Below are positions 15,420 to 57,726 of a DNA stretch of 64,000 nt, in pieces. The DNA lies in the NCBI GenBank assembly GCA_020746835.1, contig JAGPNK010000031.1:124001-188000 (forward strand), given 5' to 3'. Numbering within the stretch: the first letter of the stretch is position 1; the number at the start of each line of letters is the position of its first letter. The position numbers and the translations under genes were made by a program. The notes under the pieces were generated by a model. That model saw only the letters and a list, made by a program, of their open reading frames with translations. It was not told the DNA's origin and searched no databases. The stretch comes from Stachybotrys elegans (taxonomy: Eukaryota; Ascomycota; Sordariomycetes; Hypocreales; Stachybotryaceae).

Positions 15420-15571
15420 AGAGATCGAGGCGCGGCATGAAGCCTGCCAAAGAAGTGCTTCCGGTAGAGAATAGGAAAGGGCAATTGCAACGCCGATGCT
15501 GTAGGCAAGTCCGATGGATACGATAAGTTCTGCACCTTCGGGCAGGCCCTCTGCCACGATGACACGAGGGA

Positions 15572-15878: not shown

Positions 15879-16439
15879 CATCCTTACCCCATGGCTACAT
15901 GGTTGGTCATGGAAGAGTGCAGGGCGACTAGATATACACTTGATATCCGTAGCCAGACGAAAATAGGGTCAAATGCTCGAGTCTGGGCTGACAAGGAGAG
16001 CCCCATCTGCTAATGGGTAATTGTAGCGCATTGACCCGTTGAATTTATTCGACTTTCCACAAGACGCAGTTCCGAGACGCTGTCAGGCTCGCCTAGGTCA
16101 AGTGACTAGGTGGGGAATCCGCTAGGATAGGCTTGATTCATTACCCGGAATTCAAGAGACTCGTGTTCAGCGGCTTCGAAAAGCCCCTGCCTAGAGGCAG
16201 CTAACCCAGTATCCCTTGCCAGCTTCGGCCGGCACCAAAGTAGGTAGGCAGTTCGGCCAGCAGTCTCCCTGTAGTCCGGTCCACCTGACAGCACCCGCCC
16301 GTAGCGATCGACATCGCCCATACCCCTGCTGCTGCCATCGCAAATCAGGGCTATGGGTCAGGGGACTAGACGCCCGGAACCGACGCCCTTCCCGGCTTCA
16401 GACTCGGCATGGCCCGGCTTGTTCGCGCTGCCATGGCCG

Positions 16440-26215: not shown

Positions 26216-26763
26216 AGGGGCCACCCTTTGAGACTCGATGTCCATCCTGATTCTTGAAGACAAGCCGGCCACATTCGGCTGTGTTGCATGCCCTAGTGTT
26301 ACTTCGATGCCGGCCAAGAATTGTCGATGTGATCCGGTACTGCGGACGCATTGAGGGCATGGGTCACCGCAACCTTCCGCTTGCCATCATGTTGGCCGTC
26401 ATCCTTGTCGGCGAACGCGAATGGGAAATGAGGGCAATCGCCGAGCAAGTACTCCGTTGCGGCCCTGGTGTATGTCGGACTGACGCAAGCGAGCACAGAG
26501 ATGTCCGATTGGCTAGCTCTGCCTCCAGTGGGTCAATGTGCCATGCCCAACAGAAGAAGGAAGAAGGGGGGTGGGGGAAGGGGGGGTGAGAATTTGGCCC
26601 ATAGCTAGATCCCGGAACGTCAGCACCACAATTTCTTTTTGCAGCTGCCGGGCTTCGCGCATTAAAGGCGGGATCTTGTACTACGTCGATGCCGACCCAC
26701 AGCTAGACACCCCCTGCTTCCAGCAGTTCCATGCTTTCGGACACGACCATGGTCCATTCCTGG

Positions 26764-26812
26764 AGCGGCCGGCCGGAGCACGGTCCAATCAGATGCTGCA
26801 TATTCCGGAACC
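26764..26812 (+). repeat. Family-1 CCAAT unit (copy E)
   Basis: GCGGCCGGCCGGAGCACGG, TCCAATCAG, TATTCCGGAAC in the standard order. Confidence 0.8.
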
Positions 26813-34180: not shown

Positions 34181-36199
34181 TCGGGGGCTGCGGTTAGCAG
34201 ACTGGTCTCTCGATGTGTGTACCTACCGTTCGTCGGCGTGTGTTCTGACGAGGCTGGCCGAAGGTGACGTACCGAAAATGATACGCTGAGATCGGGATAC
34301 CGTCGCGATGCCGGCGGAAGTCCTCAGGTGACGAAGAAGCTGACCCATCACGGAGTATATCGGCCCTCTCATCCAAAACCTAGCAAGTGCTCGCGAGAGG
34401 TCCTTGGAGGCCCAAGACGTCCTGAAATCGACTATGAATGGCGTCTTTATTGCTTGCGGGCGCATCCGACGGTCGGAAATATGCGGCATTGTCTCCTTCA
34501 GGGCCGGCGAGCTCAACACTGCGGCTTACACATGACGAGGAGTCGCCAGTACATGCGGCAGCGGGCTTGAAGGCATCCGTCAGTAGCGGCCTTATATTGG
34601 AACGGAGGCGGGTCTCAGACCACTTCGAGAAAGCAGCGGCTGGACGGATGACAGAAATGGACGAGAGTATTGTTGCAGGTACGCGTGGTTCCAACAGACC
34701 CGTTACCACTTAAATGCAGTTCTTTCGGGTCGTACGTTTCGCGGTGCGTCTCGCTGTTCTAGCCCGCTAGGTTGCAATCCGGTGCGCCATCTCCCAGGGC
34801 ACTGTCAGATGGCAGATCGAGAACTTTCAGCTCCTTCCGGTAGCATGCATGCTGAAGTTGGGAGCCGATGGAATCCGCTCCTCGGGGTTCTCGTAGGCGA
34901 ACATATGACCAGATCTCTAGCCCTGGTGTAAGTTAAAGGTGCTCCAACAGTCGTCAATCGTCCCACCCGGTGATACTCCTCCAAGAGGCCGATTCCGGGA
35001 GAACCTCTGCCGATGAATGGTGCCCTGGTTGAGAGTGCATATCGCTGTAGAAAGAGTCCCATCTGTTCTTCCGGGTCAATCGTGACGGAACTAGAGATTG
35101 CATAGGAGTAGTCATCGAAAACCTCGAAGTTGACGTCGGCCGCTACTTCCCTGCCAATAAGCTGATCCAAGACGATCCGCCCAGTATCACATTATGTATG
35201 TATAGGAAGGATAATATCCCACAGGTGTAGTGCAGCGGACGGTAGTTGAAGGAACCGCCCTCTCGCGGCGTCGGATACGGGGTCACGGATGGTTGTTTCT
35301 GACTCGGCAATGATAGTTGATCCAATAACAGAATACGCATGCGGTGGCAGCGAGTGGATCAGAAGAGGGCTCCATTGGCGTAGATGAAGCTGTGGCATAC
35401 CTCCAGAACAGCTACCTGGAAGGCTTGGGCTGTCTTGACGGCGTGCCACTTCGTCTCAGGGCTCTGGCGAACTGCCTCGTGCGAGCCGCCTCTTGGTACT
35501 CTGGAGAAAATCTCGCCTTGCTAGATTGAGTAAGCTGGGTGTTCCAACCGGCTGGCTGGTGTGATTTGGCTCCCGCCTCTGACTTACCTATATCCGGGCC
35601 TGGCCAATGGCTCCGTCTCGAGGCACATATTTGAGGCCGCGGTAGGCTAGGTCGAACTTGAACCTGCCGGCGATTAACCAACGATCTCGACAGCTCCGGG
35701 ACGTTCATGATGAACGGGACCAGAATCGTATTAAAATGGAAAAGCATCAGGCTAGAAGGTCGCAGAGCCGCATCGACCGGGTGTTTACGCTAGCCGGGCG
35801 TCAAACGGCAGGGTAATCACCCTTTCCAGCCTTGGCGTTCATGCTGTTTTTGGAAGGCCACCAACCCCAGACCAGTTCCCTGCTGAAAGACTTCGCGTAG
35901 CGAGCCCATTCGCCGGAAGCAAGTGCTGGGCTTCACGCCCATGTAGCCCGGAGGTCGTTCACTTAAGCGTCCCCTAGCAGACCCACAGCGAACCGGTCAG
36001 GATCGGCACCGGACCTCTTTGCCCCAATTTCGAGTGACCCTAACCGTTACCAGGGTGGTCATGCAAGCCAAGGGATCATAATGGTGGAGTGCTATGATGA
36101 ACCTTTCCTCTTACAGCTAGTCAGAGGTTTCGGACACCAAAAACGTCGACTTTGGGTGCAGGTCAGTGCGATCCCTGTACATTTTCCAGCTTGCGGAAG

Positions 36200-36243
36200 T
36201 TCCGGAATAGACAGAAGTTGATTGGACAGTGCTCCGGCCGGCC
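36200..36243 (-). repeat. Family-1 CCAAT unit (copy F, inverted)
   Basis: On the minus strand: GGCCGGCCGGAGCACTG, TCCAATCAA, TATTCCGGAAC. About 80 bp further on the same strand is the satellite motif GCTGTAAGAGGAAAGG (36102-36120), also found beside other copies. Confidence 0.8.
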
Positions 36244-36385
36244 CCTCACTCATGGTTATCACGGTAGAGGGTTCACTCACCAGTGCGGATACTCCATACG
36301 GAACTGTTAGTTGGAGCCTGGGAGACTTGCTTGTCTCGGTTCTTTCCACACAAAAAGAGCAATTTTCGTCTCGGTGCAACTCTTT

Positions 36386-36813: not shown

Positions 36814-38743
36814 GATTTCTGTGATAAGGACTAAGGCCGCGAAGCAAGTGCATGTTGATGGGAAGGTGCAGAACTCGGGACCCAAGCGAGAGGGTATTTA
36901 TAGTACGATGCCTCTATGCGGCCCTGGTGAGGAGCACTGGTTCATCTGCAGCTCCCCAAGCCAATCACTTTCTACCAAATGTAGCTGCAGCTTCGGGCTT
37001 ACCACCTTTGACTGAGGCATTTATTCCGTCTCTCAGACTGGTAGATGCGACCTGAGACCTGAGGTAGCACCCAACACTAAGAGGGGTAGATAAAGACGAG
37101 GAAACAGACGTCGAGGGCTTCGCGGGGTCGACCCGAGCAACTCATCGCCAGCATGGTAGCCAACGATAATTTGGCAGGGGCTTGCGGGCAAAGAGCATGA
37201 CCATGATTACTGCAGGGCAGAGCCACGGTATGTTGAGGGCAGAAATCCAGCGCAAACCCTCGGCTTGCATTTATGTTGGCCGCCATCCTTGTTGGATAGT
37301 GGCAGTTGAGGGGAGGGAAGGGTACTTGTCCCTGGCTCCCTGACCCCTCTCCCCCGCTCTATGCCCGTTCCTATTGGCCGTTTGCTTTACGATGATGCCA
37401 TGCTCCCTTCCCTCGCCGGCCTGTCAGTCAACTTCCGGCTGTGGAAAAACGGTTGGTGTAGCCCTTGCTTCGCTGTGCCGTCAGACAGGGAAGGGGCAGT
37501 AATATAAACAGGTCTTGAATGTAGAACAGCGACCGCAACAATGCAGTGGGGCAATGCACTACCAACAATGCCAGATGAGGAAGTGGATCTGTCGGTCGGT
37601 CCTATGGACCATCCCGTTGCGGTGGCACAGTTGCTCTCTGGGCACGTAATTAACGCCAAGGCGGGGGCAAGGGTAAGTGCGAGAGCGAGGACAGGCCGGC
37701 CGTCATCCGTAGTTCAAGTGCGAAGATCCTCCACCAGATCAATGTCAGCCTGAAGCCCTTGCTTCCGGCGGCAGTTGCAATACATGACATGTACAACCAG
37801 CCAATAACAGGATTCTCCCATTGCATGGACCGGTGTTCCTAGCTGTAAGAGGAAAGGTCAGAGGCTTGACCTCAAGACAGCACGCTCCATCGTCATCCTT
37901 CGGGTTGCCTCTCGGCTGCCTTCCGGGCATTCACTTTCAAATTGGCTAGGGGTGAACCGATGGGCAATTCTCTTCCGGTTTGGAAACTGCTGAGAAGTTA
38001 GACCCCCCGGCGGTCGTTGGCATGCGACGTGGACTGGCAGCCGTGCCGCCTGAATCACCTCATTGATGCCTCTCGCCACCTTGGCCACTTTAACTGGCTC
38101 GTGGGTTACGCATCCTCAGTCGCTCGCTCGTCTACCGGCCTTCTAGCTTCCACTGTCGGGTTCGAACGGGAGGAGTAGCTGGATAACGGACTGGGTCATA
38201 TTCTGCTCAGCGCCGTCTAAACAGCTGTTGTTATCAAGGGGTGTATCCAGCATGGCGTCAAGTTGGGGGTTGCATATCAAGTAGAGAGCTTGCAGTAATC
38301 TGTATTCCCAAGGCGTCTTTTGTATCCATGCTACAGCAACGATGCTGGTGTCACTAAACAAGCAAGGCATAGTGATAATAGAAATCTCCAAGAATATCAT
38401 TACGGTTATGCCCCGCGAGCACGTAGATTACATTATTACCAGTCAGCTTGCCGTCGTTACGATCCCAAATGCACCTTCACCGGGTCGACATACTGGGCCC
38501 TTAGTCACCCAGTTGAACTAGACTCTCATGTTCCCACTAAAGTCACCTCCTTCGCTTTTCCATCCATTGTATTTGCCGACGGAGTTTGGGGTTTGGCAGT
38601 TAGCAGTTGGATTGCGAGATTACAGATGTCAAGCTCCATCATCGTGCGCAAATGTTCCATATGGACGTGTAGAGGTTGAAGTCTGATTGCCGTCATACGG
38701 CGGGGCCGTTAGACTCCAAGAATATAACCTCCATCGACGAATA
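36814..38743. other. Intergenic stretch with repeat pieces
   Basis: It includes a family-3 copy (37666-37774) and a GCTGTAAGAGGAAAGG motif (37841-37859). A minus-strand 85-codon frame at 38143-38400 next to the MSH2-like gene is unassigned. Confidence 0.45.
37666..37774 (+). repeat. Repeat family 3 copy
   Basis: GGCAAGGGTAAGTGCGAGAGC-type head (about 37666), GGCCGTCAT (about 37697), and the tail CTGAAGCCCTTGCTTCCGGC ending GGCAG at 37774. The copy at 43701-43790 is collinear. Confidence 0.75.
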
Positions 38744-40213
38744 CTAGAGGGCGTTGGCTACATCCAGTCTCTCATCTCTGGCGAAGATGATATTGAAGAT
38801 TGGCATCTCGGCTTCTGAGCAGGGCACAAAGCAGCCGATCTGCGCCATCAAGGCAACAGCGCCAACCGCAAAAGGACAATCGACTCCTGTCCCGTCAAGT
38901 AAAATAAGCTTCCCTCTTTCCCATTTGGTATGTCCCGCGTCGCACCGTCCCGTTACGACTTTGCAGAGGCAATTTACGCCTTTCAGATGTAGTCCGCCGC
39001 CATTGCCTTCAGGATGGATTGTCGGAAAGCTGTAGCAACCACTAGGGGCGGTAGCAAAGCAGTGTGCCAGCGAGGTAACAACGTCAAGGTGTGCCAAAAG
39101 GAGTGATATCCTTTCGAGCACAGGGTAGTAAGATGAGGCGACACGGCAAAATTCAGGTAAATATGCCACGACCCAAAAGCCTTTCTTCTCCATCTCTCCA
39201 CTCAGATGCCACAATTCACTAAGACTGTCGAAAAGGCCCGAAAGATGTTTTCTGTATGCCTTGTCCAAAATCTCACGGTCTTCCTGTGTCGTTAGCCCCT
39301 CCAATGCTTCAGTCAATTTCTTCAGCTGAGACAGCAGCTTGAATATGTGCGAGACATATATCTTGTTCAACTCCTTTCCCTGGAGGCACCCGCTCAATGA
39401 ATACGGGTCAGGAGTATATGGAAGGAGGTTGCGTATCGTTTCCCTGAGATTTTCGTTGTAACAAAATATGGCGATAAGCTTCTGGCGCATTTTGATGTCT
39501 GCTCTGATCTTCAGAGGCTGCTTGAGCCATCTGGCCAACAATTGTCTGCCCATTTTCGTTTCACAACGGTCCAGCGTTTTATGTATGCTCATGGAGTCGC
39601 TGGTGTGTTCCGGAAAGACTCTCAAGGCTTTTAGTGTCTCGAAGTCAATGCTTGCAAGTGTATTCGGATCGTGTCGGTAGAAATTGTAGCCCCCTTCCGT
39701 GGAGGTATCGATCGGAATACCCAGGTGTTTGATGAGAGCTGCAGTAGGGCCCATAGCCAGCGGCTGGTTTGCTTGAGACGAACGCGCTGCTAGTTTATTG
39801 CGTCCGACGACGAGCCTGTCTAGAGTATCCTTGATGCCACTGGTTCCGAAATTATCGGCAGATCGCTTAGTTATGGTGACGCCGCATCTCTCAAGTACCC
39901 ACTGGAGCTGAACCAGCTCAGGATTGTCGATACCATCTACCTGATTGTCTTTTATCAGGCACTCTCGCACGTTGAGTTGGCTTAACAAGACCTGGAGAGC
40001 AGAGTAATGGTCATTGTCTAAAAATTCGCTGACTGCTAGCTCACGAATTTTGGGGTCAGCGAGGCACACGCCCACCCTCCTGGCACTGGTAGCTTCGATG
40101 ATTATATCGACGGCGAGAACCATGTAAGTCGGATCAGCCCAGCTACCCTGAATGTCCCCTACTTCTTGCAGATTTCCTAGGAAAGTTTGCTCAATGTAAT
40201 CTCTGCAGATCAT
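38744..40213 (-). CDS. Truncated MSH2-like MutS homolog, copy 1 (no Walker A)
   Basis: A 489-aa open frame. The N-terminus GNLQEVGDIQG ... LAVDIIIEATSARRVGVCL ... ELAVSEFLDNDHY matches the MSH2 connector domain. QPLAMGPTAALI and LLARWLKQPL match the core/lever region. SSYYPVLERISLLLAHLDVV and VALMAQIGCFVPCSEAEMP match the ATPase domain on each side of the nucleotide site. MSH2 pairs with MSH3 or MSH6 in mismatch recognition. Here the mismatch-binding N-terminal domain is absent or not found, the clamp region is shortened, GPNMGGKST is replaced by a segment with no GxxxxGKS/T, and the ATPase part ends before Walker B. It therefore cannot be a normal MutS ATPase. A short conserved frame at 40265-40456 may be an upstream exon: it ends at an AAG/GTACAC donor, and a splice to 40213 is in phase. 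The partner copy is at 48777. Confidence 0.82.
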   Translation of the reverse strand: MICRDYIEQTFLGNLQEVGDIQGSWADPTYMVLAVDIIIEATSARRVGVCLADPKIRELAVSEFLDNDHYSALQVLLSQLNVRECLIKDNQVDGIDNPELVQLQWVLERCGVTITKRSADNFGTSGIKDTLDRLVVGRNKLAARSSQANQPLAMGPTAALIKHLGIPIDTSTEGGYNFYRHDPNTLASIDFETLKALRVFPEHTSDSMSIHKTLDRCETKMGRQLLARWLKQPLKIRADIKMRQKLIAIFCYNENLRETIRNLLPYTPDPYSLSGCLQGKELNKIYVSHIFKLLSQLKKLTEALEGLTTQEDREILDKAYRKHLSGLFDSLSELWHLSGEMEKKGFWVVAYLPEFCRVASSYYPVLERISLLLAHLDVVTSLAHCFATAPSGCYSFPTIHPEGNGGGLHLKGVNCLCKVVTGRCDAGHTKWERGKLILLDGTGVDCPFAVGAVALMAQIGCFVPCSEAEMPIFNIIFARDERLDVANAL

Positions 40214-40264
40214 CTTACTTGAATCAGTTTAGGTGCTTTGCAGAGGGATGGACGGTGTGTGTAC

Positions 40265-40456
40265 CTTGCGTGTTTGACGCTTATTGGCATGCGAGCTCAG
40301 GACGAAGAGGCTCCGATCACACGATGCCTGGCCGTGTCGCTTTGGAAAGTCGCAGCTAGGAGGGCTCAGCGCCTCATCGATATTAGTATGGCCAAGGCAG
40401 CTGGCTATATAAGCGCACGCAAGAGCCGCATGCCCCCTATTCCTATTTCTCCCCAC
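40265..40456 (-). other. Possible 5' exon of MSH2-like copy 1
   Basis: The frame GHTNIDEALSPPSCDFPKRH ... SCDRSLFVLSSHANK ends at a GTACAC donor at 40264. The equivalent region of copy 2 (48549-48714) differs mainly by in-frame indels and third-base changes, which favours coding. No in-frame ATG is visible, so another exon or a non-AUG start would be needed. Confidence 0.4.
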
Positions 40457-42342
40457 TTGGATTCACGGTGGGGGCTAAGACTCTCCTACTCTCTTCTGAC
40501 AGTGTAACCCAAATGGTGTCCTCCCCATCCATATACATACTCAGCCTAGACCGGGTCTGACTGGCTCTTGGGTATGCTGGCAGGAATGGTTTCGAACATC
40601 ACGCTGCATGATCTAGGGCAATGGCAGGGTTTTGCCCCCTGCACATGACCATGGGGCATTGCCAGCTCACGGACAGCGGACAAGATGAAGCAAGGCCTAC
40701 CAAAGAAGTTGTCTATTTCTGCTCTCGGCCAGCCTCTGGCATGAATCAATCATATCCTCTTCATAGGTACACTGTACCTATAGAAATCTTGTGAGGGACG
40801 GCAAGGAAAGTATCCCATGCCTCTGCAGTCATTTCAGCAAACCCATTTGGCTGCTTCGTCGCGTCGGTGCCGCTACGTGCCCGCCAAAATGGCACAGACT
40901 AATTGCTATACCTCTGGAGTAATGTATCGAATCGGAGTAAGGCACCAAAGGAAGCACGAGCTTGGTGGAATATCGCGAGGCTGTTGTCAAGCGAGGAGAG
41001 CAAGTTGCTTCGGGAGGAACAGGATAATCAAGGGAGCGAGTGAGACCAATGTTGGAAGTGATCAAGATCGAATTCAAGTCATTTTTCTGCAATTGCCGCC
41101 GGAATCATGGGGTTTCGCGTTGATGTATCATCCCGGTTGAGCCTCCGTCCCTCGTCCCCTCGCCTCCCAGATAGCCGTCTACCTGCCTCGATGGCATCCA
41201 GACGGCCTGACTCATTCCCTGCATAGAGTATTGTTGGCCGCCGCAAATAATCGCCAGACCCTTGCTCTGTAATCACCCCCGCTAACCTCTGAACCAGAAA
41301 CAGCAAGTAGCCTTGGAGGCGGTCAAAGCGATTACCTGGGCGGAAGTGCTGCTCACAGACAGTAGAAGATAGCAGGTCCATTTCCTATGGAACTTGGATT
41401 GGGTCACCTGTACGGCTCAAGGATAGACCATGCACATTGCCACGACCCTCTTCCTCTTCCTGAAGCGAATCATCAGCATCCGATTAATGGATAGAGCCGA
41501 CCCCCCCCGGTCCGTCCACACCAGCACCTGCATATCTTTCCAGTTACAAGCCATGAACCAACTCAGCGTCCAGCGCCAATCATTTCAGTAACCCTTGCAC
41601 ATGCCAAGGCAACTTGTGCACACTGCTGATGGGGACCGGTAAGAAGGGGGTGGGCAGTGGCGTGGGAGTAGAGAGCTCGGGACGACTGTCCCTTGCTGCG
41701 CACCGACAAGGATGGCGTCAGCCATGGGAGACATATCACCAGTCAAAGGCATCTGGATGCATTGGGTATTTGTTTGAACAGAAGGAAAGAAGTGGTTCGG
41801 ACGGAAGGAGTAACTTTCAGGCCATTCAAGCACCGAGCCGAGCCATCTCGGAGCAGTTTTTTTCCTCCGGTTGACTCACCGCAGCATTCATCGGCTACTG
41901 GACTCTTACAACCAGATGACATTGCCAATATGTTGTTTGCGATGGGCCGCTGGTCGTGGTTGTCTTGCCCCTCCTACGTACGGTAGACTCATGGGCATAT
42001 GAGAGAGCTCACAAGGCCCGCCGTTTGCCTATGCGAAAGTCTTGCTGAGTCCATCCGTCAGATCGGCTCTAATAGATTTGAATTTGGGGGTGCCAGAAAA
42101 ATGGAGAGTGTCTGATATGAAGCTTGCTGCGCGCCGAAAATGTCCCGCGGGCTTAGCGCCGGACAGAAGTTGGCCAAAAAGGCTTCACGTCGCTTACTCT
42201 TTCTAGAAATAAGGGGGCATGTTGTTGCGCGCCCAGCTACTACGCCGAGCCGTGCTTCCCTGGCATCTCGCCATCGATTTCGGCTGCAGGCCAATGCAAC
42301 CCCTGGCCTCGACACTGGTCCGTGCCCTTCGCAGTTCAGGAC

Positions 42343-43161
42343 ATTCCGGAATATGCAACAGCTGATTGGACAGTGCTCCGGCCGGCTGCTCAGCGATTGG
42401 ACAGTGCTCCGGCTGGCTGATCATTGCATTCTCGAGGTTTGGCACTGAGCTTTGGCCATACTCAGTGTGGGTCGTCGGCGTCCTCAGCACGATGAAATGC
42501 AGTGCCAGACGACAGGCTGAGCCGTTATTCGGGGGTTCCGGGGCGCTTCCATTGGCTGTTCATGGTCATTCTTGCAATACCGGAAGCAGGGGACTTTGCC
42601 ACCCCTGACATTAACCATTCACTTTTCAAGCTGTCAGAGATCCCAGAATGCCAGCTTGCACCATCGGAGGATGTCCTATTGGGCATCCATGCAGTCTCTC
42701 GCGGCTGCAGGATGTAAAGGGTCGGAGCGATTGCTAATAATAGGGAGAGACAGTCTGTCATATCCGCTGTTACGTTCATGGACACTGAGGCATCATCAGA
42801 CATGCGCACCATAACTGGCCAGTGGGATATGTGTGACAAGCAAGGCTCTACTCCATCGCCTTAGCCTCTGGTGGACGTCGTGGCTGCTGTACGAGTGATG
42901 AGGCTGAGCTAGTAAATCAGCGTCAAGCCACGCGGTTCCCTACTGCTGAGCAGCTGGCCGGAGCACCGTCCAATCGGTGAGCAGCCGGCCGGAGCACTGT
43001 CCAATCAGCTGTTACATATTCCGGGAACGCCATTTCATCGTGCTGACGCCGACGACCCACACTGAGTGTGGTCAAAGCTCAGTGCCAAACCTCTAGAATG
43101 CAATGATCAGCCAGCCGGGGCACTGTCCAATCGCTGAGCAGCCGGCCGGAGCACTGTCCAA
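42343..43161. mobile_element. Foldback element: about 131-134-bp inverted arms flanked by family-1 units
   Basis: The arm at 42366-42499 and the reverse complement of 43031-43161 match almost base for base through TTGGACAGTGCTCCGGCCGG, GCTGATCATTGCATTCT, GGTTTGGCACTGAGCTTTG, CTCAGTGTGGGTCGTCGGCG and CAGCACGATGAAATG. They differ by a 3-bp indel and a few substitutions. The spacer is about 531 bp without a supported ORF. Each arm contains two family-1 heads, and the left arm is preceded by a unit end (TTCCGGAATATG). A third pair of heads lies at 42951-43025. Confidence 0.75.
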
Positions 43162-43700
43162 CCTGCCTCTGTAAAGGGAAAGGTCCGGCTTCAAAACGCA
43201 ACCTGCAGCTAAATCAACGCCTAGCTGCAAGAGGAAAGGTCATTACCAGGGGTAGACTTGATTGTAAGACAACAACTCGGCGATCTCGACCATTATCGCC
43301 GTTCGGTTGGTTCTTTGCCTTGCCCTTTAGGGCAATTGGTATTTGGTCCTCAGTGTGGCACTATTCGAGCAACCCGACACCCTCCCCCGACGTTATGCGC
43401 GGCCACCAGCCTGCTATGTTGCCATAAAACTACACCGCCTGAACCAACAACATTACCACCTTGATATCTATGCAGTATCAAGAATATTTCCTCTACATCT
43501 AATCATCCACATTACGTCAGCCATTCCTGTCAAGGCAGCAACCAGCCAGATTAAAGATAGATCTGCTATCCCGCAATCTAATGCTGATCTTTACTCTAAA
43601 ACTTGCTTGTACTCGTGGTGCCCTTTGTGATCCTGGAGTGCAGGCAGATGGAGGAGGGGGTGGTTATAATACGCCTAGTCCAGTTTATGGCTGTATCGCC

Positions 43701-43790
43701 AGGGCAAGGGTAAGTGCAAGAGCAGGGGCCAGCCGTCATATGTGTCCCACCACACCAATATCAACCCGAAGCCCTTGCTTCCGGCGGCAG
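43701..43790 (+). repeat. Repeat family 3 copy
   Basis: GGGCAAGGGTAAGTGCAAGAG head, GCCGTCAT, ACCAATATCAACC, tail GAAGCCCTTGCTTCCGGC plus GGCAG. Collinear with 37666-37774. Confidence 0.75.
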
Positions 43791-44302
43791 GTCGATGGCA
43801 GGGGTAGCCTTGATTATCACCTTTCTGCTTGAACAGCGGCTTGCCTACCGGCCTAGGAAGTACCCTTGCCCTTACACCGATCCTAGGAATTTGGTTGGCT
43901 GCCTTGTCACCTCGAAGCTGCTACACGCGCCCACACACACCTCTCTGCAAGCATTGACGACTCAAGACCACAGGCATGGCGAGGGCACCGTGTTGAAGCC
44001 GGGGGCGGGCCGTAGCTACGAGCACGAGCATGGCACTCTCGTACCAGAATGCACTGGCTAATCTTCGTCTTGCTCGCCGAACTTATCTCTTACTTGCTGC
44101 CGACTGACCTGAGCTCTCTGTGGGGAATCTACAAAGGGTACTTCTTCTAACATGGCCAGGATCAGCGATTAGTGACGACTTATTCAACTGCTGCCTTTGA
44201 AATCGATACGTCATTCCTCTTCCCTTCGTTTCACGTCTCTACTGATATACTAGCTACCTTTTAACCTTGTTCACCCAGGCCACTCAACGCCGGCCTTCAA
44301 GC

Positions 44303-44504
44303 ATGCGCCGTCTTGCTCCATCGACGTACAGCTTGATCTCATCTTTGATTCAACCGATACTGCTCGACTACTTTTCTCCTCTTAGGGTATGTCGCCCTTA
44401 TTATCCCGTTGCTTGACCAAGCATGCTCTCTCCATTGCTCTTATGTTCCAATGCTAACATACGCCTATCATACTTTATGTAGGAGTGCTGTCGCTGCCAG
44501 TAAA
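44303..44504 (+). other. Possible spliced transcript of unknown content
   Basis: After a CT-rich leader an ATG at 44303 opens 28 codons to a GTATGT donor at 44387. The 96-nt intron has a TGCTAACAT branch site and a TTTATGTAG acceptor (44482). The spliced frame ends after six codons (ECCRCQ, stop at 44501-44503). The splice signals are strong but the product is tiny; it could be the 5' UTR or a lost first exon of the BAH-PHD gene. Confidence 0.25.
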
Positions 44505-45223
44505 CTTGGCTCAAGAGCATCCAGGAAACCACGCCTGCTTGGCCCTTCTGTCGAGGAGAGAGCAAAGGTTCGCCCGAATCGAATCGTTTGATATACATCC
44601 ATTGGCTACGAATTACGTGCAGCCCTCCGTTCGACCCATGGGCACCTGAGGCACTTGACGCCATAGCGAAGCCCGGGTGGCGGTAAAGAAGTACAATGAC
44701 TAGGTAGGTGCAGACGCCTACTGGCGCATTTGCATCACGGGCTCGGCGATGTATACTCGGCGGCGGCTGTCCGAGCCTTACTTCCTATGCCAACCTACCT
44801 TGGCTTTTCATCCTTATCGCTATGATAGCGCTGAATTAATATCATGATCACTAACAAAGGCGCAACACCAGGCCTACTCGTCTGATCCGGCATGGAGCGC
44901 GTAGGCGATATCGAAGGCCACGTCTACTATATGACAAGAAAGCCAGAAAAGCAACCAAGTACGGCCAGAATAGGTGCAAAGGGAAAGTCACCCGCCTGCA
45001 TAAAGCAAATACATATATCGGCAAAGGGCACCACGGAAAAAAGAAGCAGTTTCCCAGCCCTGAGAGAGCCACCATCGGCTGCTTCGAATATCTGCCCATT
45101 CCAGGTAACATTGGCAAGAATACTACTGCATTGTTCAATTCTTTCAAGGCCTGGCTTCGGACTTACTATGCTGGACAGCCCCTTAGCCAGAATCGCTTCG
45201 AAAATCAATGTCACGATATCCGA

Positions 45224-46355
45224 ATGAATAAGGAAGCTGAAGGGACTCTCCACTTGACTGGTAACCAAGGCCCTAGGCGAGCCACTACGCATAGCACGAA
45301 GCTTACCAATCACCTGGCTCCATCTATTCACTGTTCTTCTGCCAAGCCAGTCAATGATACGCCCATATATTTGGTTCCAGAACGGCTAGATCGTGACGAA
45401 GCTCCCGAGGTGGAAGCCGTCAGGCTTGCTTCATGGTGGGAGAGCATGATCAAGTGTGACCATGCCGCTACTGAAGATTTCGTTATGGTCTACAATGCCC
45501 ATAACAATCGTATCAGGATAGCCCAGATACTGGAGATACGTGCTGCCGATGGACGTGAGCTCTATGCTCTAGTCGCCTGGATGCTCAGCCCCGACAATCT
45601 TCCCGAAAACACTATTTGCGGCAAGTCATTCATCGAGGGTCGCCAGTCGTATCACGGCAATCAAGAGCTGATCTGCTCTAACCAAGGTATACCATTCCGC
45701 ACCCTGTCGGACCCATTACATAACAACTCACTTCTTCATCTTTCAGGGGGTATTGTCCATCTCGCTAGGCTTCGCAGCCAAATATGTGTCAAGCATCTGG
45801 ATGAGTTAGGTGGCTTCCGACCTGAGCCCCATCAATGGTACTGGCGACAGAAGTTCGATTGCTTTACCCGGGAGCTTTCTGTAAGAGTTGGCGAGACATT
45901 GATACAGACTTGAGGCTAATGTCTGTGACCAGCACATAAAGACAGTGTGTACTTGCAATACCCCGGCGAACCCGGAAAAGATACTCATTGGATGCTCAAA
46001 CGTGGAGTGCGGGGAATGGATGCATTACCGGTGCCTGTTCGACGACATGTTGACTCGACTTGGGGGGGAGGAGATAAATGGCAAACATCTGCAAGATAGA
46101 ATTGTCAACGGAGATATCAGGATCTCTGGCAACGTCGAGCAAGCCAGCATGCCGCTGTCGGACGGCAGCACTCTCTACGGGACCAATTTCTCGATATTGG
46201 ATGACATGGGTAGCCCCGCCGAAAACTATTTTGTGGCAACACTTAACCTCGTATCCAGCCCTGCTCATTGGAGGATTACCTATTGGAATGGTATCCGGAT
46301 CCAGACAGACACAGTTCCATGCTTGTGCTTGTTGTGCGGACAGGCTATTCCATAG
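45224..46355 (+). CDS. BAH-PHD domain protein
   Basis: Model: join(45224..45686, 45747..45880, 45933..46355), 339 aa. The first intron (60 nt, GTATAC ... TTTCAG) keeps the frame either way, but removing it restores the BAH block ELICSNQGGIVHLARL. The second is 52 nt (GTAAGA ... ACCAG). The BAH domain spans about residues 65-170 (FVMVYNAHNNRIRIAQILEI, LYALVAWMLSPDNLP, SFIEGRQSYHGNQELICSN). A PHD-type zinc finger follows (VCTCNTPANPEKILIGC, CGEWMHYRC), with the last Cys pair displaced to the C-terminus (CLCLLC). BAH-PHD proteins read chromatin marks; Neurospora EPR-1 of this class acts in H3K27me3-linked silencing. The displaced final pair and short length suggest a diverged paralog. The start Met at 45224 is the first in frame. 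Confidence 0.83.
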
Positions 46356-48548
46356 TGCCATTAGTATATCTAACGATCAGACAATTCTGCAGTACGATGA
46401 GCTCTAGTAAGAACAATGTGAGTTGTCAAATGGTCAATCGACAGTCTGGCAGCAAGATTCCTCATGGGCCGAGGGCTTGCTGGTCAGTTGAGCCACCACT
46501 ATCTTATTCGGATTAAACTGGACGTTATGGTTCTCTGTGTAAATAAAGAGAACGCAGACAGCCCAGCCAGTATCCTCCTGTGGCAGAGCAGAGAGACTGG
46601 ACGAACCAGGCGAGCGAAACGAAGCAAGAAGCGGCCCAGAAGTCGCAGGCGATGTCGCGCCGGGGTTGTCGGTGGAATCCTGCTTGATCGGCTCGACGTG
46701 GGGAGCGAAATCAAGTTGGCTGTATTCATGGTGATGCAGCCACTCTAGGTAGCAAAGCAATGCATTTGGCATCCAAGCCCCTCGACCGCGGGGTTAGTCG
46801 GCGTGGCTAGTATCAAACCAGTCACATCTAGAGTCCCTGTACAGTTACTTCCGTGGTATCATCAAAGAGGTGAGTGACGGAGGCTGAATGATGGACCCCA
46901 TTGCTGTTCGAGTGGGTCATCTAGGATCCATATGCCATGAGATGATGATGGAGCGGCCGACCGGAGCACTGTCCAATCAGCTTTTGTGTGCTCCGGAACC
47001 ACATTGACCTGTAGCCAAAATCGAAGTGTAAGAGGAAAGTACGGCTCGGCGCTAGCATCCGGCACTAATATTTCCGGATCAGACACTCGCCATTTCGCAG
47101 GCGTGTCAGAGCAAGTCTTCCGCATGGCGAATGTGAGCTGTCTCGCGGAATCGACCGTGCGTATGAGGGCGAGACAGCCACGACCAGTGGTTCACCGATG
47201 CAAACAGCAGATTAACAAGCCCATCCGATTGTACCCCGGTGAATCAGCTGGAGGAAGAACCTTTGGCAACACAAGCTGCCTTGGCAAGGAATACCGGGCT
47301 GGGTGACGTCGCACGCTCGTTGGCTCGCGGCTTGCAACTGGAAGCCCATGTGCAGGTGCCGATGCGGACGGACCAGGGGGGTACCCAATTGAGAAAGAGA
47401 CGAGAGCAAGCGAACCATAAAATAGAGTGGGCCAATGTCCCATGCCATGGTGGTCGGACCAGAAGGGTCAACACGCATGCTAATAATCCGCACTTGGAAG
47501 AGGCAGAGGGGTGTGGCAATCCCATCGTCTTGACCCGCACAGGGGTCCCAATCCAAGTTTATGGGAAGTGGACCCGTCTGCCACACTATTATCTACGACG
47601 ACAATGTCTGTGAGCAGCACTTCCGCCCGGATAATCACCTTGACCGCCCAAGGCTGCTTGCCATTTCTTGTTCAAACGTGTAGGAGCAAGGGCCAGCGAT
47701 TAATTACATGTAGCGGTCAACAATACTGTATGCAGGGATGAAGCGGGCCGTCGGGATCTCAGCAAGACTGGCGAGCGGGCGAAGAATGGAGGCTGAATGA
47801 CCGCACCGGATCACACATCAGGCGAAGCCCCTTGCTTCCGGCAGTAATCGCAGAAAATGGCGTTAATTCGAGCTTCATTACCTCTAGTGTTGTTCTTATT
47901 CCCTCCCTTGGTTATTCTGTTCCTCCTCGAGCAACTCGCGGCATTCCAAGCTTGTGCCCCCTTTGGTAGCGGATATCGTTACTGTTTCCCTTGTAACCCC
48001 AGAGCCTCTGTACAGCGCTTGCCTGTAGTTCCAACCCTTACTCCGACTTGGTATATGGCCTCAGAGAGGTGGGTCGATTGGTCCACGCAATTTTGCATGT
48101 CGAGAAATGCGGGCGCGGACCAGCGTTGAGGTGACGAGGCAGCCAAACGGGGTCGATGAAGTGATTGCAGGGATATGAGATGCTTCCCTGTCTGCCACAA
48201 AGTTCCTGCAGGCGTAGGGCGCCTATGGAGCGAGTATGACTGGCTCCCGCCAAAGACTGGCCAAGAACAGAGACCTGAAGCTTCATTGGCTGGCCTTACT
48301 TCATCCTGTCCGTGATTTGGCAATGCCCCTTGCTTATACGCATAGGGAATTGCCCTAGATCACGGAGCGTGTCGAAATCACCTGCGCCGGCATATTCAAG
48401 GGTCAGTCAAAAACCCGGTCTAGGTCGAGTCTATGGACAGGGAGAAGATCGCTCAGGTTACACGGTCAGAATAGAGTTGGAGAGTCCTGGCCCCCACCAT
48501 GAATCCGAATGGGGATAAATAGGAATAGGGGGGGCATGCGGCTCTTGC
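46356..48548. other. Repeat-bearing stretch without a gene
   Basis: A family-1 unit (46952-46999) with its GTGTAAGAGGAAAG satellite (47025-47039) and family-3 fragments (47684-47848, GGAGCAAGGGCCAGCG and GAAGCCCCTTGCTTCCGGCAG) lie here. ORFs are antisense pairs. Confidence 0.5.
46952..46999 (+). repeat. Family-1 CCAAT unit (copy I)
   Basis: GCGGCCGACCGGAGCACTG, TCCAATCAG, GTGCTCCGGAAC. It is followed 5 bp later by TGACCTGTAGCCAAAATCG and TAAGAGGAAAG, a tail shared with copy F at 36102-36243. Confidence 0.8.
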
Positions 48549-48714
48549 TTGCGCTTGTACGGTCGTCTGTTCCGTGGCCACATCAGTATCGCTGAGGCGT
48601 TGAGCACTCTTCACGACCGCTTTCCAACGAAGCGAGACGACCAAACATCGTGTGGGCGGAACCTCTCCGCCCTACGTTTACATGCCATTGAAGGCTCCAA
48701 CATCGAAGCACAAG
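48549..48714 (+). other. Possible 5' exon of MSH2-like copy 2
   Basis: The frame GHISIAEALSTLHDRFPTKRD ... SCGRNLSALRLHAIEG ends at an AAG/GTACAC donor at 48715, aligned with 40265-40456 (-). Here the donor phase does not match the ATG at 48777, so copy 2 may use another acceptor or have lost the splice. Confidence 0.35.
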
Positions 48715-48776
48715 GTACACACTCCGCCCATCTCTACACGGTTCTTCTAAAAGGCGCACGAACTAAGTCAAGTTAG

Positions 48777-50471
48777 ATGGTTTGCATAGTGCACGAGGGC
48801 ATCTCACCTACCGGACACCATAGGAATTCGGAAGGTATAGAAGAGCCACCCGCCAACTCTTCAATTGATCCCATATGGCATTTCGAATGCACCAATCCTT
48901 TGGAAGTTCTCCTCGATTACAAGCAACTCGTCCTGCTACAGAAGAGAATAGTCGAATCCAGAGGGCGGGATTGCACTGAGCGAGATTCAACTTCTAGAAT
49001 TCTCGCCGTTGATATAACTGTCGAAGCTACTGGTGCCAGGAAAGTGGGCGTCTGCTTTGTCGATGTTCTCGAGCTGGTGGTCGACGAATTTCCAGACAGC
49101 GACTGCTACTTGGCCCTGCAGGCCTTGATGATCCAACTCAACGTGCGGGAGTGTCTCATAAGAGCTGGTCAGGGAGATGGTGTTAACAATCATGAGCTGG
49201 CTAGCCTCCATCGGGCAGTTAGGAGTTGCAACATCACCATAACCGAGCGACCTGCCGATGATTTTAGAAGCCAAGGTATCGAGGAAAAGCTGGACCAACT
49301 CGTCGTCAGGCGCAATATAGTCACAGCGGAGTCATGTCAAGCAAACCAGCCGCTAGCGATGGGCACGATTGCGGCTCTCATCAACTACCCGGGTATTGCG
49401 ACGGAGACCTCCAAGAGAGGGTGGTACCGCTTCTGCCGCTACGATCCGAATATGTTTGCAAGCATTGATTCTGCGGCACTCAAGGCGTTGAGAGTCTTTC
49501 CGGAACATAGCAGCGACACGGAAAGCGTATACCAACTTCTGAACCACTGTCAAACGGGAATAGGCAGCTGCTTATTGGCCAAATGGCTCAGGCAACCTTT
49601 GAAGAGCAAGCCACAGATCGAAGGGCGCCAGAAGCTTATCACCATATTTTGTTCCAACATAATGCTTAGGGAAGCAGTACAAGCTTTCCTCCGATCGGAC
49701 CTCGACTTACATCCCTTATGCTGGCACTGCCATGGAGAGGGATGGCCGAACTCGAGAAACGCCATTGGCATATACATATTGGCATTTCGGCTATTGGAAC
49801 TGATAAGAATATTGGAGGGGCCAACAGCAGAGACAGATCGAGAGCCTTTACGCACGGCATATAAAGCTCCTCTTATGGATGTGTCCAAGAGTCTTGGCAC
49901 ATTACTGAGGCTGCCTCGGGAGATGAAAGAATACGAATGCCATACTTACAAACGGTTAGATCAGTCCGAAATTTGCCGCGTTGCATCATCTTATTGCCCT
50001 GTGCTCGAGAGGCTATCATACCTATTGGCGCACATCGACGTTATTACCTCACTGGCACAGCGCTTTACTGAAGCCAACTCTGGTTGTTATACTTTCCCTA
50101 CAATCGATGCTGGTGAAAATGCTGGAGTGCGTCTGAAAGGCGTGCGCCGTCTCGGCAAAGATGGAGAGGGGTCGATCGATGTCGACTGTACCAAACGCCG
50201 GTGCAACAAACTTGGTACCCATATCATTGCGAGACCCAATGACTTTCCCAAGATTGGCGTTGTTGCTTTGTTGGCGCAGATCGGCTGCTTTGTGCCCTGT
50301 TCGGAGGCTAAGCTACCAATCTTCACCTCTATCGTCGCCGGGCAGGGAATGCTTAATGCAGCCAATGCTTGCCCTTCAGGCTTTCTTGGGACTCTTATTC
50401 TTGTTGATAAAGGTCCAAGAAACCCCTTGCCCAGTAGCCGTCAGGATACAACGAATAAGGGTCCAGCTTAA
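48777..50471 (+). CDS. Truncated MSH2-like MutS homolog, copy 2 (no Walker A)
   Basis: A 564-aa open frame, collinear with copy 1 over almost its whole length (by eye about half the residues match). MSH2-type blocks are LAVDITVEATGARKVGVCF, QLNVRECLI, QPLAMGTIAALI, LLAKWLRQPL, ASSYCPVLERLSYLLAHIDV and VALLAQIGCFVPCSEAKLP. As in copy 1 the clamp is shortened and the Walker A site is gone (IIARPNDFPKIG in its place), so both lesions predate the duplication. Copy 2 has a longer N-terminal stretch (about 45 extra residues, ending ERDSTSR) and a C-terminal tail without similarity (GFLGTLILVDKG ...). Both frames remain open despite strong divergence, which argues for some selection on the proteins. 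Function unknown; a regulatory or structural role is speculation. Confidence 0.8.
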   Translation: MVCIVHEGISPTGHHRNSEGIEEPPANSSIDPIWHFECTNPLEVLLDYKQLVLLQKRIVESRGRDCTERDSTSRILAVDITVEATGARKVGVCFVDVLELVVDEFPDSDCYLALQALMIQLNVRECLIRAGQGDGVNNHELASLHRAVRSCNITITERPADDFRSQGIEEKLDQLVVRRNIVTAESCQANQPLAMGTIAALINYPGIATETSKRGWYRFCRYDPNMFASIDSAALKALRVFPEHSSDTESVYQLLNHCQTGIGSCLLAKWLRQPLKSKPQIEGRQKLITIFCSNIMLREAVQAFLRSDLDLHPLCWHCHGEGWPNSRNAIGIYILAFRLLELIRILEGPTAETDREPLRTAYKAPLMDVSKSLGTLLRLPREMKEYECHTYKRLDQSEICRVASSYCPVLERLSYLLAHIDVITSLAQRFTEANSGCYTFPTIDAGENAGVRLKGVRRLGKDGEGSIDVDCTKRRCNKLGTHIIARPNDFPKIGVVALLAQIGCFVPCSEAKLPIFTSIVAGQGMLNAANACPSGFLGTLILVDKGPRNPLPSSRQDTTNKGPA

Positions 50472-52149
50472 CAGGGTGGCCAAGGACCTAAAGTATCGAT
50501 CGGAAGAAAGCCATTTCGGAGCAGCACAACAGCGGGTCGCCTGGCAATAACATAATATTCCTGAGCATTCATGGAGTATGGCGGTGAAGATTGGCTTAGA
50601 GACTTCTATTATCAACACACTTGATGCTTCGTCCCTTTTTTTTTTTTTTTGCTCACGCTCTATTGGAAATGAAGAGGAAGGCAGAGGATATAGAGGATAG
50701 AGAGGAGGCCACTTATTTGGCTAGCATGGCATTGGCCAATGAGGAGGAGGACCTGACCAGAAAGAGTAATGGCGGGGTAGCCTTGGCGGGGTAAATCTTG
50801 ATCGTGAGCCACCGAAGGTAGGACGAGGTTCATCGTCTTATCAATTACTTGTTCATTGCTATATCGGTCGGTATCATTTCCGGCATAGTAGGGACGGGCC
50901 TAGTAGCTGTCTTGGTCCTCGATTCCCTCGCTATCAAGCCTCTCGCCGCCGTGCTGTCAGTTGTGACGAAAGACATGTTCTTGAGATGCAATGCACCCGT
51001 CCCAGTAAATCTTACCCAAATATCCCGCTTGGCAATCAGCGCCGTGCAGGAGCTTCCAATTGGTGTAGCTCACATTGATGTGCTAATTTGGCTGACCAGT
51101 CCCCGTGTATCGCTGCGGCCGCGAGATATGCAGTGCTCCATGGCTTCAGGGCACAAGAGGGCAAAGACAGAGTTCTTAGGTCGGGGTATGGCAGCAAATA
51201 CTTAGATGGTGTCCTCTGGGGGTCGGCGGCTATCCCGGGCTTGCCGACTCCAACCACAGCATCAGTGGCTATGTTGCTCGGATGTTTGCTGTTCCATTTG
51301 CCCTCCGCAGCTACGGAACGGGGTGCGCCAGCGTTGGTGGGCATGGTCGGTGTGATTGTTGAGTGTCGTGGAAAGACAATGGTACAGGTTGAAGAGGGAC
51401 AGAATGCTGGAATGCCGCACGGCCTCACTGACCTGGTTTGCCTGTGATAGGTCGAACTGGGCGCTCGTAGATGCGACGGCACGGTGCAGGTTGACCACGC
51501 AGTTGCCGATTATTCTGGTCACTTCCTAGAGAACTATATGTCGACACGCGCTCTTCTATCCACTGAACCGCCCAAGTCCACTACCAGAGAGTTGTCTAAT
51601 ACACCCCGGGAGCCGCTTCCGCAGCCACCTGTGCCTTTAAATACGTTAGACTCTGGAGTCATCTCTCCCAATCAAGATATATGATGATCCAGCCTACAAC
51701 AATACTAACATGGGCTCCAAGACTTCGCTCAGGCAGATTCGGGGTATCGTCCGTTTGGACATGTACGGGATTGCAAACGCTTCTAAGTCAGAGGATAAGA
51801 TACCGTACGGGTTCAAAGACATTGCGGCAGCTTGATGAAAGGAGCCGACGGAGACACGATGTGATTGACGAGTTGATCACAAGAGGAGAGCTGGGCCCGA
51901 TATTGTGCGGCTAACTTTACACTGTTACGCCGCATGAGCAGAGGCCGTGTGCAAGAGTCTTGGATGCAGCCAGGATGGCTCTGGACAGGATGGTAATTGC
52001 CGCTCTATGGCCATGTCGATCAAAAGGGGGCGGGCCCCTCCCGAGCCTCGATCAGAGGGCTGGCAGGAAGGTAAGAGGCAACATGATGATGATGGACGTA
52101 TAGAGCAGAATCTCGGGTAAAACTTTGCAAGACGTTAGCATATTTTGCC
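50472..52149. other. Stretch without a supported gene
   Basis: A T15 run (50636-50650) is followed by a 41-codon ORF from ATG 50670 (MKRKAEDIEDREEATYLASM), not convincing alone. Overlapping ORFs at 50849-51522 on both strands have no domain. The end may hold unrecognised remnants of the calpain-like gene's 5' half. Confidence 0.45.
50636..50650 (+). repeat. Poly-T tract (15 T)
   Basis: A run of 15 T between the MSH2-like copy 2 and the calpain pseudogene. On the minus strand it reads as a poly-A run, but no retrocopy joined to it was recognised. Confidence 0.85.
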
Positions 52150-56532: not shown

Positions 56533-57726
56533 GGTGAAGGCCGCGATGGTGGTGAGCTGGGGACAACGCGATTCCACTAGCGTACAAGCGACGATGACGC
56601 TGCAATTCAATAATAGCGGTGTTGACAATGATGTGGTATCAGTCGCACTCGTCAAACCGATAAAGTCTGGGGTAATTGCGGAGACCTGGAAGTCTGTTTG
56701 GGACGAGCGAGAGGGGCTCGCAGATGATATTCGGCCTTTTCCTAGGAGGAAACGTGTAACCAGCAGGACAGGCATAAACTCACTGTGATATGGAAAGATT
56801 CGACCAAACCGCGCAGGGGAAGTAAATGGATGAAGGCGCTCGAGAGGAGTACCGTCTCGTCTCCATCTCGTTGGATGAGAAAAGGGAAAAAGAGCGAAAA
56901 AGAGTACATGGACGGAGTAACCGCCCCAAAGAGGGAATGCAGTGTTGCTGAGCTTCATGCCTTCCGCTGCGGGAGATATTAAGCAGGGCTCACCATGCGG
57001 ATGGGCGAGTGGCCGGGGGGTGAGACAATGACGGGCTGGGGGGTGCGGCCGAGCAGTCAGATCGAGCCAAGCAAGCCCAGCCTCAGCACTCGTCCAGAGC
57101 GGCAGGGGAGGGGTGGCCTTGGGTGGGTATGGGACGAGCAAGACAGTTGGCCAGGCTAGCGCTGCCACCAAAGTGCGCCAGCCCGGGCGCGCGCCAGTGG
57201 GCGAGAGGACAGAGAGAGCTGAGTCCCTTACCTACTCAACGACAAGTGCTATGCCTCTCATTAGAGCCACCCTTTCAGCAGCCACATCGCGTCTATTGCT
57301 GACATGCTGGGCATGACCCTCGCAGGCTGCAACCCGGTGCGCATTTGAAATGTGAGTTATCGGCGTAGAGAGCTAAGAGAATGACGGAATTGCTGGGGGA
57401 TAGAGAGATGGCGGTCGTCTTCTTTTCCCGTCGTTTTTGTCCGTGCTATGGTCAATGACGGCATAGAGCTCCAATTAATTAGCCAGGTTCGCTGCAGGGA
57501 GTTTCATCAAGTGCCACCAGCGCCAGGGAGTGCCAGAAAGGCAGAGGCGCAGGTCGTTATATAGCGTGCAGTCTAGGCCATAGCCGTTTGTGGTCATGGG
57601 TGATGCGATGGGCGAAACAAGGAGCACATGTCCATGACAAGAAGCAGCTTTAACGAGGCGGTCAAGTCCAAGTCACGTTTGAGTTAATGCTTCCCCCCTC
57701 CATCCAGCTACAGGATCAAGATTGGC
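56533..57726. other. Promoter region of the Zn2Cys6 gene and 3' region of blm10
   Basis: The open frame of the activator continues upstream of its ATG to 57171, but this part has no conserved sequence and is taken as leader. No separate gene seen. Confidence 0.55.

What the first reader, a model, noticed from the sequence alone, without database searches (positions are those of the whole stretch)
38744..50471. Head-to-head pair of MSH2-derived proteins without a Walker A motif
Two long open frames (489 and 564 codons), in opposite orientation about 8.5 kb apart, both keep MSH2 connector, core/lever and flanking ATPase blocks. Both have a shortened clamp, no GxxxxGKS/T, and end before Walker B. 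The shared lesions mean one truncated ancestor was duplicated. The copies have diverged to about half identity by eye, yet neither has a stop or frameshift, unlike nearby pseudogenes. This could be a new, non-catalytic MutS-like family (for example a partner or inhibitor of MSH3/MSH6, or a chromatin protein) in an accessory region.
Basis: partly seen in the sequence, partly recalled or inferred. Interest (0 to 1): 0.85.

Follow-up and report, generated by a model that had tools for sequence, protein, structure and literature searches.

The report
Twin MSH2 offshoots without an ATPase
A fungus carries two old, mirror-image copies of a cut-down mismatch-repair gene that lost its motor and DNA-gripping parts, yet both have stayed readable as proteins for so long that they are probably working genes of an unknown, possibly regulatory, kind rather than dead remains.

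Summary
Two open frames (489 and 564 codons) derive from MSH2. They keep the connector and core domains and lack the mismatch domain, the clamp, Walker A and a working Walker B. The host is the fungus Stachybotrys elegans, whose genome also holds a full-length MSH2 and genes recognisable as the other five MSH genes. The frames sit on the arms of an old inverted duplication that includes flanking DNA. They share several deletions, so one truncated ancestor was duplicated. Divergence is high (50% amino-acid identity, dS about 0.56), but neither frame has a stop where 6.5-9.1 per copy are expected under neutrality. In the MSH2-derived part 4 of 5 indels are in frame (the fifth marks the end of copy 1), against 10 of 32 in the upstream flank. 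Selection on amino acids is weak (omega 0.76), and absent where MSH2 itself varies (1.10 against 0.66-0.72). No similarly truncated relative was found in another species among the candidates scored. Most likely the copies are fast-evolving, ATPase-less MSH2 paralogues. A role as connector-domain binding modules for MutL proteins is inferred, not shown. No expression data were available; everything rests on one genome. New variant of a known kind, not an established family.

The parts
38744..40213 (-). Copy 1, 489-codon MSH2-derived open frame: connector, core, ATPase remnant
   Evidence: the first 331 aa equal the annotated Stachybotrys elegans protein P0002
48777..50471 (+). Copy 2, 564-codon MSH2-derived open frame: first ~68 residues without detectable MSH2 similarity, then connector, core, ATPase remnant, degenerate Walker-B-like strand
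39722..40099 (-). Copy 1 connector domain (MutS_II)
   Evidence: residues 44-169 of the stop-to-stop frame
39065..39637 (-). Copy 1 core domain (MutS_III) with the clamp excised
38777..38866 (-). Copy 1 MutS_V remnant without Walker A
49029..49388 (+). Copy 2 connector domain (MutS_II)
49473..50057 (+). Copy 2 core domain (MutS_III) with the clamp excised
50250..50378 (+). Copy 2 MutS_V remnant without Walker A
40214..41621 (.). Left arm, duplicated upstream flank (stops in every sense frame)
47252..48776 (.). Right arm, duplicated upstream flank (inverted copy of 40214-41621)
38373..38529 (.). Left arm, duplicated downstream flank
50455..50614 (.). Right arm, duplicated downstream flank
41622..47251 (.). 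Spacer between the arms: a short local repeat family and a 352-aa open frame without Pfam match
34353..35176 (-). Broken copy of part of a 612-aa open frame at C25:190601-192436 (+, no Pfam match); possibly part of the same inverted duplication; used as a control

Best explanation
These are two living, lineage-specific MSH2 paralogues. An MSH2 duplicate lost its mismatch-binding domain, clamp, P-loop and C-terminus, and survived as a connector-plus-core protein. It was later doubled by an inverted segmental duplication, and both daughters have since evolved fast while keeping their reading frames. They cannot work as an MSH2: they have no ATP site, no clamp and no mismatch domain. The most likely mode of action is as a non-catalytic binding module. 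The retained connector, which in yeast Msh2 recruits Mlh1-Pms1 and Mlh1-Mlh2, would let them compete with or tether MutL-type partners away from DNA, damping or redirecting mismatch repair. Shown here: origin, lesions, duplication, frame retention, weak fold-directed constraint. Inferred: expression, partner binding, and the effect on repair.
For: A full-length MSH2 and five further MSH genes are present apart from these copies, so they are extra. A genome search with copy 2 finds only copy 1 and MSH2 (counts are lower bounds). Zero stops in 489 and 564 codons; simulated neutral evolution gives means of 6.5-9.1 stops per copy at the observed divergence. In the MSH2-derived part (copy 2 48984-50380) 4 of 5 indels are multiples of three, the fifth being the 3' end where copy 1 stops; in the upstream flank 10 of 32 are. 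Codon ML between the copies: omega 0.757, 2dlnL 4.16 against 1. Omega is 0.72, 0.66 and 1.10 at MSH2 positions of falling conservation, 2dlnL 10.8 with 2 df, so constraint follows the MSH2 fold. Omega is 0.52 over the 131 codons after the clamp (2dlnL 7.18); split further, the lever-return and ATPase remnants give 0.50 and 0.58, neither significant alone (2dlnL 3.58 and 2.15). Start codons align. AlphaFold models give pLDDT 73 and 65 with confident core helices; the best PDB matches are chains A or E of MutS-alpha and MutS-beta entries, which I recall to be MSH2. A duplicate in the same locus at like divergence did lose its frame on one side. Connector recruitment of MutL complexes: PMC6254361, passages seen.
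Against: Omega is close to 1, and in connector plus N-terminal core (0.88) it does not differ from 1. Amino-acid sites changed as fast as the flanking DNA (dN 0.43, flank K 0.36). The connector is not clearly more constrained than neutral (0.72, 2dlnL 1.33), which gives no special support to a MutL-binding role. At the 5' ends, between the aligned start codons and the connector, the arms differ by two gaps of 2 and 131 bases, together in frame but singly not; this part was left out of the indel and omega counts. No orthologue was found. No transcript data. The public annotation gives copy 1 as a spliced 350-aa protein, and no entry matching copy 2 was seen. The models were built on alignments that include 25 MSH2-type rows, which pulls them to the MSH2 fold.
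Confidence: 0.5

Rival explanations
1. Decaying pseudogene pair: an MSH2 fragment that was duplicated and drifts, with frames still open by luck or by recent loss of function.
For: Omega 0.76 overall and 0.88 in connector plus N-terminal core; no orthologues found; gene-poor, repeat-bearing neighbourhood: of frames of 200 aa or more, only these two and one other lie between 31346 and 52355; catalytic motifs gone; non-triplet gaps at the 5' ends.
Against: Expected 6.5-9.1 stops per copy, none seen in either. Frame-preserving indels in the MSH2-derived part, while the upstream flank carries 32 indels of mixed length. Constraint follows MSH2 conservation classes. An average omega of 0.76 produced by late loss of function would need most of the time to have passed neutrally, which should have left stops (inference).
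Confidence: 0.15
2. Neofunctionalised scaffold outside mismatch repair: the MSH2 core is kept only as a fold, and the proteins serve another function, perhaps in chromatin or recombination, with changed partners.
For: MSH2-conserved residues are lost widely (51 of 142 aligned positions conserved in at least 95% of 25 MSH2-type rows are kept by neither copy); sites variable in MSH2 evolve at omega 1.10; copy 2 has an N-terminus unlike MSH2.
Against: Nothing points to a particular other function; no fused domain was found in either protein.
Confidence: 0.25
3. Diverging pair under positive selection, for example in a conflict with mobile elements or in self-recognition, so that fast change is itself the function.
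For: Coding DNA has diverged more than the upstream flank (K 0.452 against 0.361) while the frame is kept; omega 1.10 at MSH2-variable sites.
Against: Omega 1.10 is not shown to exceed 1; two sequences give no site-level power; slow flanks may be constrained promoters.
Confidence: 0.08
4. Missed exons supply the ATPase, so these are ordinary MSH2 genes.
For: None found; the annotated 350-aa model shows that splicing has been proposed for copy 1.
Against: No P-loop in any sense frame around either gene; tblastn with MSH2 over the whole contig finds nothing beyond residue 688 of 870 at E up to 0.01. At the splice sites proposed for copy 1, copy 2 has GC for GT at the donor and no AG at the acceptor.
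Confidence: 0.02

Closest known systems
Eukaryotic MSH2 (S. elegans orthologue on contig C23, L004)
   Same: Connector and core domains, 40-41% identity; MSH2 is the only other protein of the genome found with copy 2; placement inside ascomycete MSH2 not rejected
   Different: No domain I, no clamp, no Walker A, no intact Walker B, no C-terminal part
Plant MSH7 (MSH6 duplicate)
   Same: A fast-evolving duplicate of an MSH gene with a highly reduced clamp (PMC12292046, passages seen)
   Different: Derived from MSH6, an ancient plant gene; the same review states that domain V is found in all MutS subfamilies
MSH4-MSH5
   Same: Lacks the N-terminal mismatch domain (PMC3828297, passages seen)
   Different: MSH4/5 keep domains II to V and act in meiosis; S. 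elegans has genes that I recognise as its own MSH4 and MSH5
Plasmodium MSH2 paralogues (MSH2-1, MSH2-2)
   Same: A second MSH2-type gene in one genome (PMC10210953, search listing and start of abstract only; MSH2-2 recalled)
   Different: Not known to have lost the ATPase (recalled)

Membership tests
MSH2 (functional orthologue) | Walker A P-loop GPNMGGKS/T | tested here: not met
   Absent in both proteins and in the three sense frames around them
MSH2 (functional orthologue) | Walker B DELG | tested here: not met
   Absent in copy 1; degenerate LILVDKGPRN in copy 2
MSH2 (functional orthologue) | Clamp and full levers (domain IV) | tested here: not met
   23-25 residues where MSH2 has 134; no PF05190 match at 0.001
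MSH2 (functional orthologue) | N-terminal domain I (PF01624) | tested here: not met
   No Pfam match; tblastn finds nothing before residue 59 of the MSH2 fragment used, which lacks about the first 52 residues of MSH2
MSH2-derived protein | Connector and core homology, nearest to MSH2 among MSH proteins | tested here: met
   PF05188 and PF05192 above cut-off; genome search with copy 2 finds copy 1 and MSH2 only
MSH2-derived protein | Placement inside Hypocreales or Stachybotrys MSH2 | tested here: inconclusive
   Free tree of 34 chosen rows leaves them at an open fork in Sordariomycetes on a very long branch; AU test does not reject Hypocreales (p 0.81) or Stachybotrys (p 0.61)
MutS superfamily as defined by domain V | ATPase domain PF00488 | tested here: not met
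   24.9 and 28.1 bits, cut-off 30.2, a fragment only
Pseudogene | Stops or frameshifts in the inherited frame | tested here: not met
   No stop in either copy, 6.5-9.1 per copy expected; non-triplet gaps only at the 5' ends, in frame together, and at the 3' end
Pseudogene | Omega equal to 1 | tested here: inconclusive
   0.757, 2dlnL 4.16
Pseudogene | No expression | not testable with these tools
   No transcript data held

The most novel reading that the evidence does not exclude
A MutS-family lineage that has shed mismatch-binding, clamp and ATPase domains and survives as a dedicated protein-binding regulator of mismatch repair: a natural, gene-encoded MutL decoy in two diverged copies that may tune mutation rate in this fungus.
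Probability: 0.2. Interest if true: 0.8.

Novelty: new variant of a known kind. Interest (0 to 1): 0.5.

Why it matters
A review of the family states that the ATPase domain is found in all MutS subfamilies (PMC12292046, passages seen). A maintained MSH2 derivative without it would show that the connector and core can be useful alone, as a pseudo-enzyme. If the proteins bind MutL complexes, they would be a natural handle on mutation rate and testable in yeast at once. If they do not, they still mark a case where a protein's frame is kept while its sequence drifts almost freely.

Tried and rejected
RIP as the source of divergence: dinucleotide indices of both copies and flanks resemble those of the rest of the window, and C/T differences are not concentrated at CpA; rejected for these copies, although the contig's first 40 kb is AT-rich at 24-31% GC. 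Hidden coding exons in the duplicated upstream flank: stops in every sense frame of both arms and mixed-length indels; rejected. Other truncated MSH2 proteins as orthologues: 2 of 67 hits lack PF00488, P0002 (copy 1 itself) and P0038 (644 aa on a 2,407-base contig, probably a fragment). In one search (5 hits), P0003 and P0004 looked ATPase-less but end just after GPNMG and look like gene models cut at an intron. Starship cargo: 41 DUF3435 matches in the genome, none listed on C25. MSH2-diagnostic residues: 11 columns, of which copy 1 and copy 2 carry the Hypocreales letter in 2 and 3 and the other in 0 and 1, the rest gaps or other letters. Separate omegas for the two copies (0.55 and 1.13) do not improve the fit. 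A third inverted pair on the contig (C25:192891-193420 and 205611-206105, 79.5%) was examined with the control; it has stops in every frame on both sides and tells nothing. I first took the 612-aa control frame for an F-box protein by eye; Pfam gives no match up to E 1, so the name is dropped. Limits: the protein searches scored only the 7,994-7,999 candidates sharing most words; no other fungal genome was searchable as DNA; tree rows (34) and alignment rows (27) were chosen by me from the hits. Papers: searches were search listings; passages were seen in PMC12292046, PMC6254361, PMC3828297 and PMC10711559. No listed title or abstract start, and no passage seen, described a truncated, ATPase-less MSH2 paralogue in fungi.
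Full report
WHAT IS THERE. Copy 1 lies at 38744-40213 (minus, 489 aa from its ATG) and copy 2 at 48777-50471 (plus, 564 aa). Each matches MutS domain II and domain III in Pfam above the curated cut-off, and domain V only as a fragment below it. The copies are 50% identical over 470 columns. The window lies on contig C25 of a 43.4 Mb genome. A protein named DNA mismatch repair protein MutS of Stachybotrys elegans, on a contig of exactly the length of C25 (227,918 bases), equals copy 1 for its first 331 residues, so the organism is very probably S. elegans. A domain-III search of the genome gives eight places: the two copies and six others, which I recognise by eye as MSH1 to MSH6; MSH2 has an open exon of about 870 codons with P-loop and DELG. 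A genome search with copy 2 finds copy 1 and MSH2 only (lower bound).

LESIONS. Against the own MSH2, both copies lack domain I, have 23 and 25 residues in place of 134 across lever and clamp, lack 15 residues after the ILAR strand, and have a shortened P-loop region without GxxxxGK[ST]. The sense frames around either gene hold no P-loop. tblastn with MSH2 finds nothing beyond residue 688 of 870 in the whole contig. Copy 1 ends where MSH2 reads LETANIL; copy 2 goes on through a degenerate Walker B strand.

ONE INVERTED DUPLICATION. The similarity covers about 1.4 kb upstream and about 160 bp downstream of the genes, in inverted orientation. A second pair, C25:158353-159176 and 191201-192060, lies outside the first, is also inverted, and is about equally diverged (71% identity). 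Its right side lies in a 612-aa open frame without Pfam match; its left side has at least 5 stops in every frame, and 5 of the 6 indels between the two are not multiples of three. One larger inverted duplication with later insertions would explain both pairs; this is inference.

ARE THEY GENES? Evolving each copy's frame neutrally at the observed divergence gives 6.5 to 9.1 in-frame stops on average; none is seen in either copy. Between the copies, 4 of 5 indels in the MSH2-derived part are multiples of three and the fifth is the 3' end where copy 1 stops; in the upstream flank 10 of 32 are, about the chance share. At the 5' ends, between the aligned start codons and the connector, there are gaps of 2 and 131 bases that keep frame only together. 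So the frame of the MSH2-derived part has been guarded on both sides since the duplication. Amino acids have been guarded much less: omega 0.757 (2dlnL 4.16 against 1), 0.88 in connector plus N-terminal core, 0.52 in the rest. Split by conservation of the MSH2 position among 25 rows, omega is 0.72, 0.66 and 1.10 (2dlnL 10.8, 2 df), so the remaining constraint follows the MSH2 fold. The path to the true MSH2 has omega about 0.18 against 0.75 for the two copies, but synonymous sites there are near saturation. Coding DNA has diverged more than the upstream flank (K 0.452 against 0.361); either proteins change fast by selection or the flanks are constrained promoters. No RIP signature.

ORIGIN AND SPREAD. 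The copies are each other's sisters (100/100) on a very long branch; the free tree leaves them at an unresolved fork in Sordariomycetes, and the AU test does not reject Hypocreales (p 0.81) or Stachybotrys (p 0.61) placement. Of 67 proteins found with the two-copy profile among 7,999 scored candidates, the only close one is copy 1 itself; the next are MSH2-type proteins with the ATPase domain at about 40%. MSH2 of S. chartarum and S. chlorohalonatus was found, but no truncated copy from them; their genomes could not be searched as DNA.

STRUCTURE. AlphaFold gives pLDDT 73 (copy 1) and 65 (copy 2), best in the core helices; the first 72 residues of copy 2 are under 50. Foldseek's top PDB matches are chains A or E of human MutS-alpha and MutS-beta entries, MSH2 as I recall. 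The alignments contained true MSH2, so this shows compatibility with the fold, not proof of it.

ANNOTATION. The public 350-aa model splices copy 1 after 39220 into another frame, discarding the lever return and ATPase remnant. At the aligned places copy 2 has GC for GT at the donor and no AG at the acceptor, and the discarded part is where omega is lowest, so the unspliced frame is more likely real. I saw no annotated protein matching copy 2.

HOW IT MAY WORK. Without ATP site, clamp and mismatch domain these proteins cannot do MSH2's work. The Msh2 connector recruits Mlh1-Pms1 and Mlh1-Mlh2 (PMC6254361, passages seen). A free connector-core protein could compete for those partners or hold them off DNA. 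This is inference: the connector is not the most constrained part, and according to the same paper plasmid-borne Walker A mutants of yeast MSH2 were not dominant at low copy, only when overexpressed or, very slightly, in a heterozygous diploid. A role outside repair is nearly as likely.

VERDICT. A real, unusual feature: two ATPase-less MSH2 derivatives whose frames are kept, apparently by selection, while their sequences drift. New variant of a known kind, in a single genome, function untested.

Noticed in passing
window 34353-35176 and C25:191201-192060 (window 67201-68060, outside the window): A second inverted pair at 71% identity, outside the MSH2-like pair: one side in a 612-aa open frame without Pfam match, the other broken. 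Suggests one larger inverted duplication.
   Followed up: partly
window 15547-15618, 15832-15906, 26752-26810, 36198-36258, 42344-43166, 46947-46999; C25:204297-204363, 206031-206105: A repeat of about 50 bases, in both orientations, whose 15 scored matches all lie on C25 (the search gives lower bounds). A locus-confined repeat family of unknown kind.
   Followed up: partly
window 44855-46355 (+), between the copies: Two overlapping open frames that by eye look like a BAH-PHD type protein (recalled; no Pfam match at 0.001). A genome search with the first finds five partial relatives, two of them with a stop.
   Followed up: partly
C25:1-40000: AT-rich block (24-31% GC) full of diverged repeats, next to ordinary sequence of 48-56% GC; looks like a repeat-silenced region.
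   Followed up: no
genome-wide (G000): 41 matches to DUF3435, the family of Starship captain recombinases (name recalled), several with stops; none listed on C25.
   Followed up: no
window 2715-5315, 10695-12068, 57716-63189: Conserved genes flank the region: M16 peptidase, DUF3295, PSME4 proteasome activator. The MSH2-like pair sits in the gene-poor stretch between them.
   Followed up: partly
window 38744-40213: The public annotation of copy 1 is a 350-aa spliced model that cuts off its more constrained C-terminal part.
   Followed up: yes
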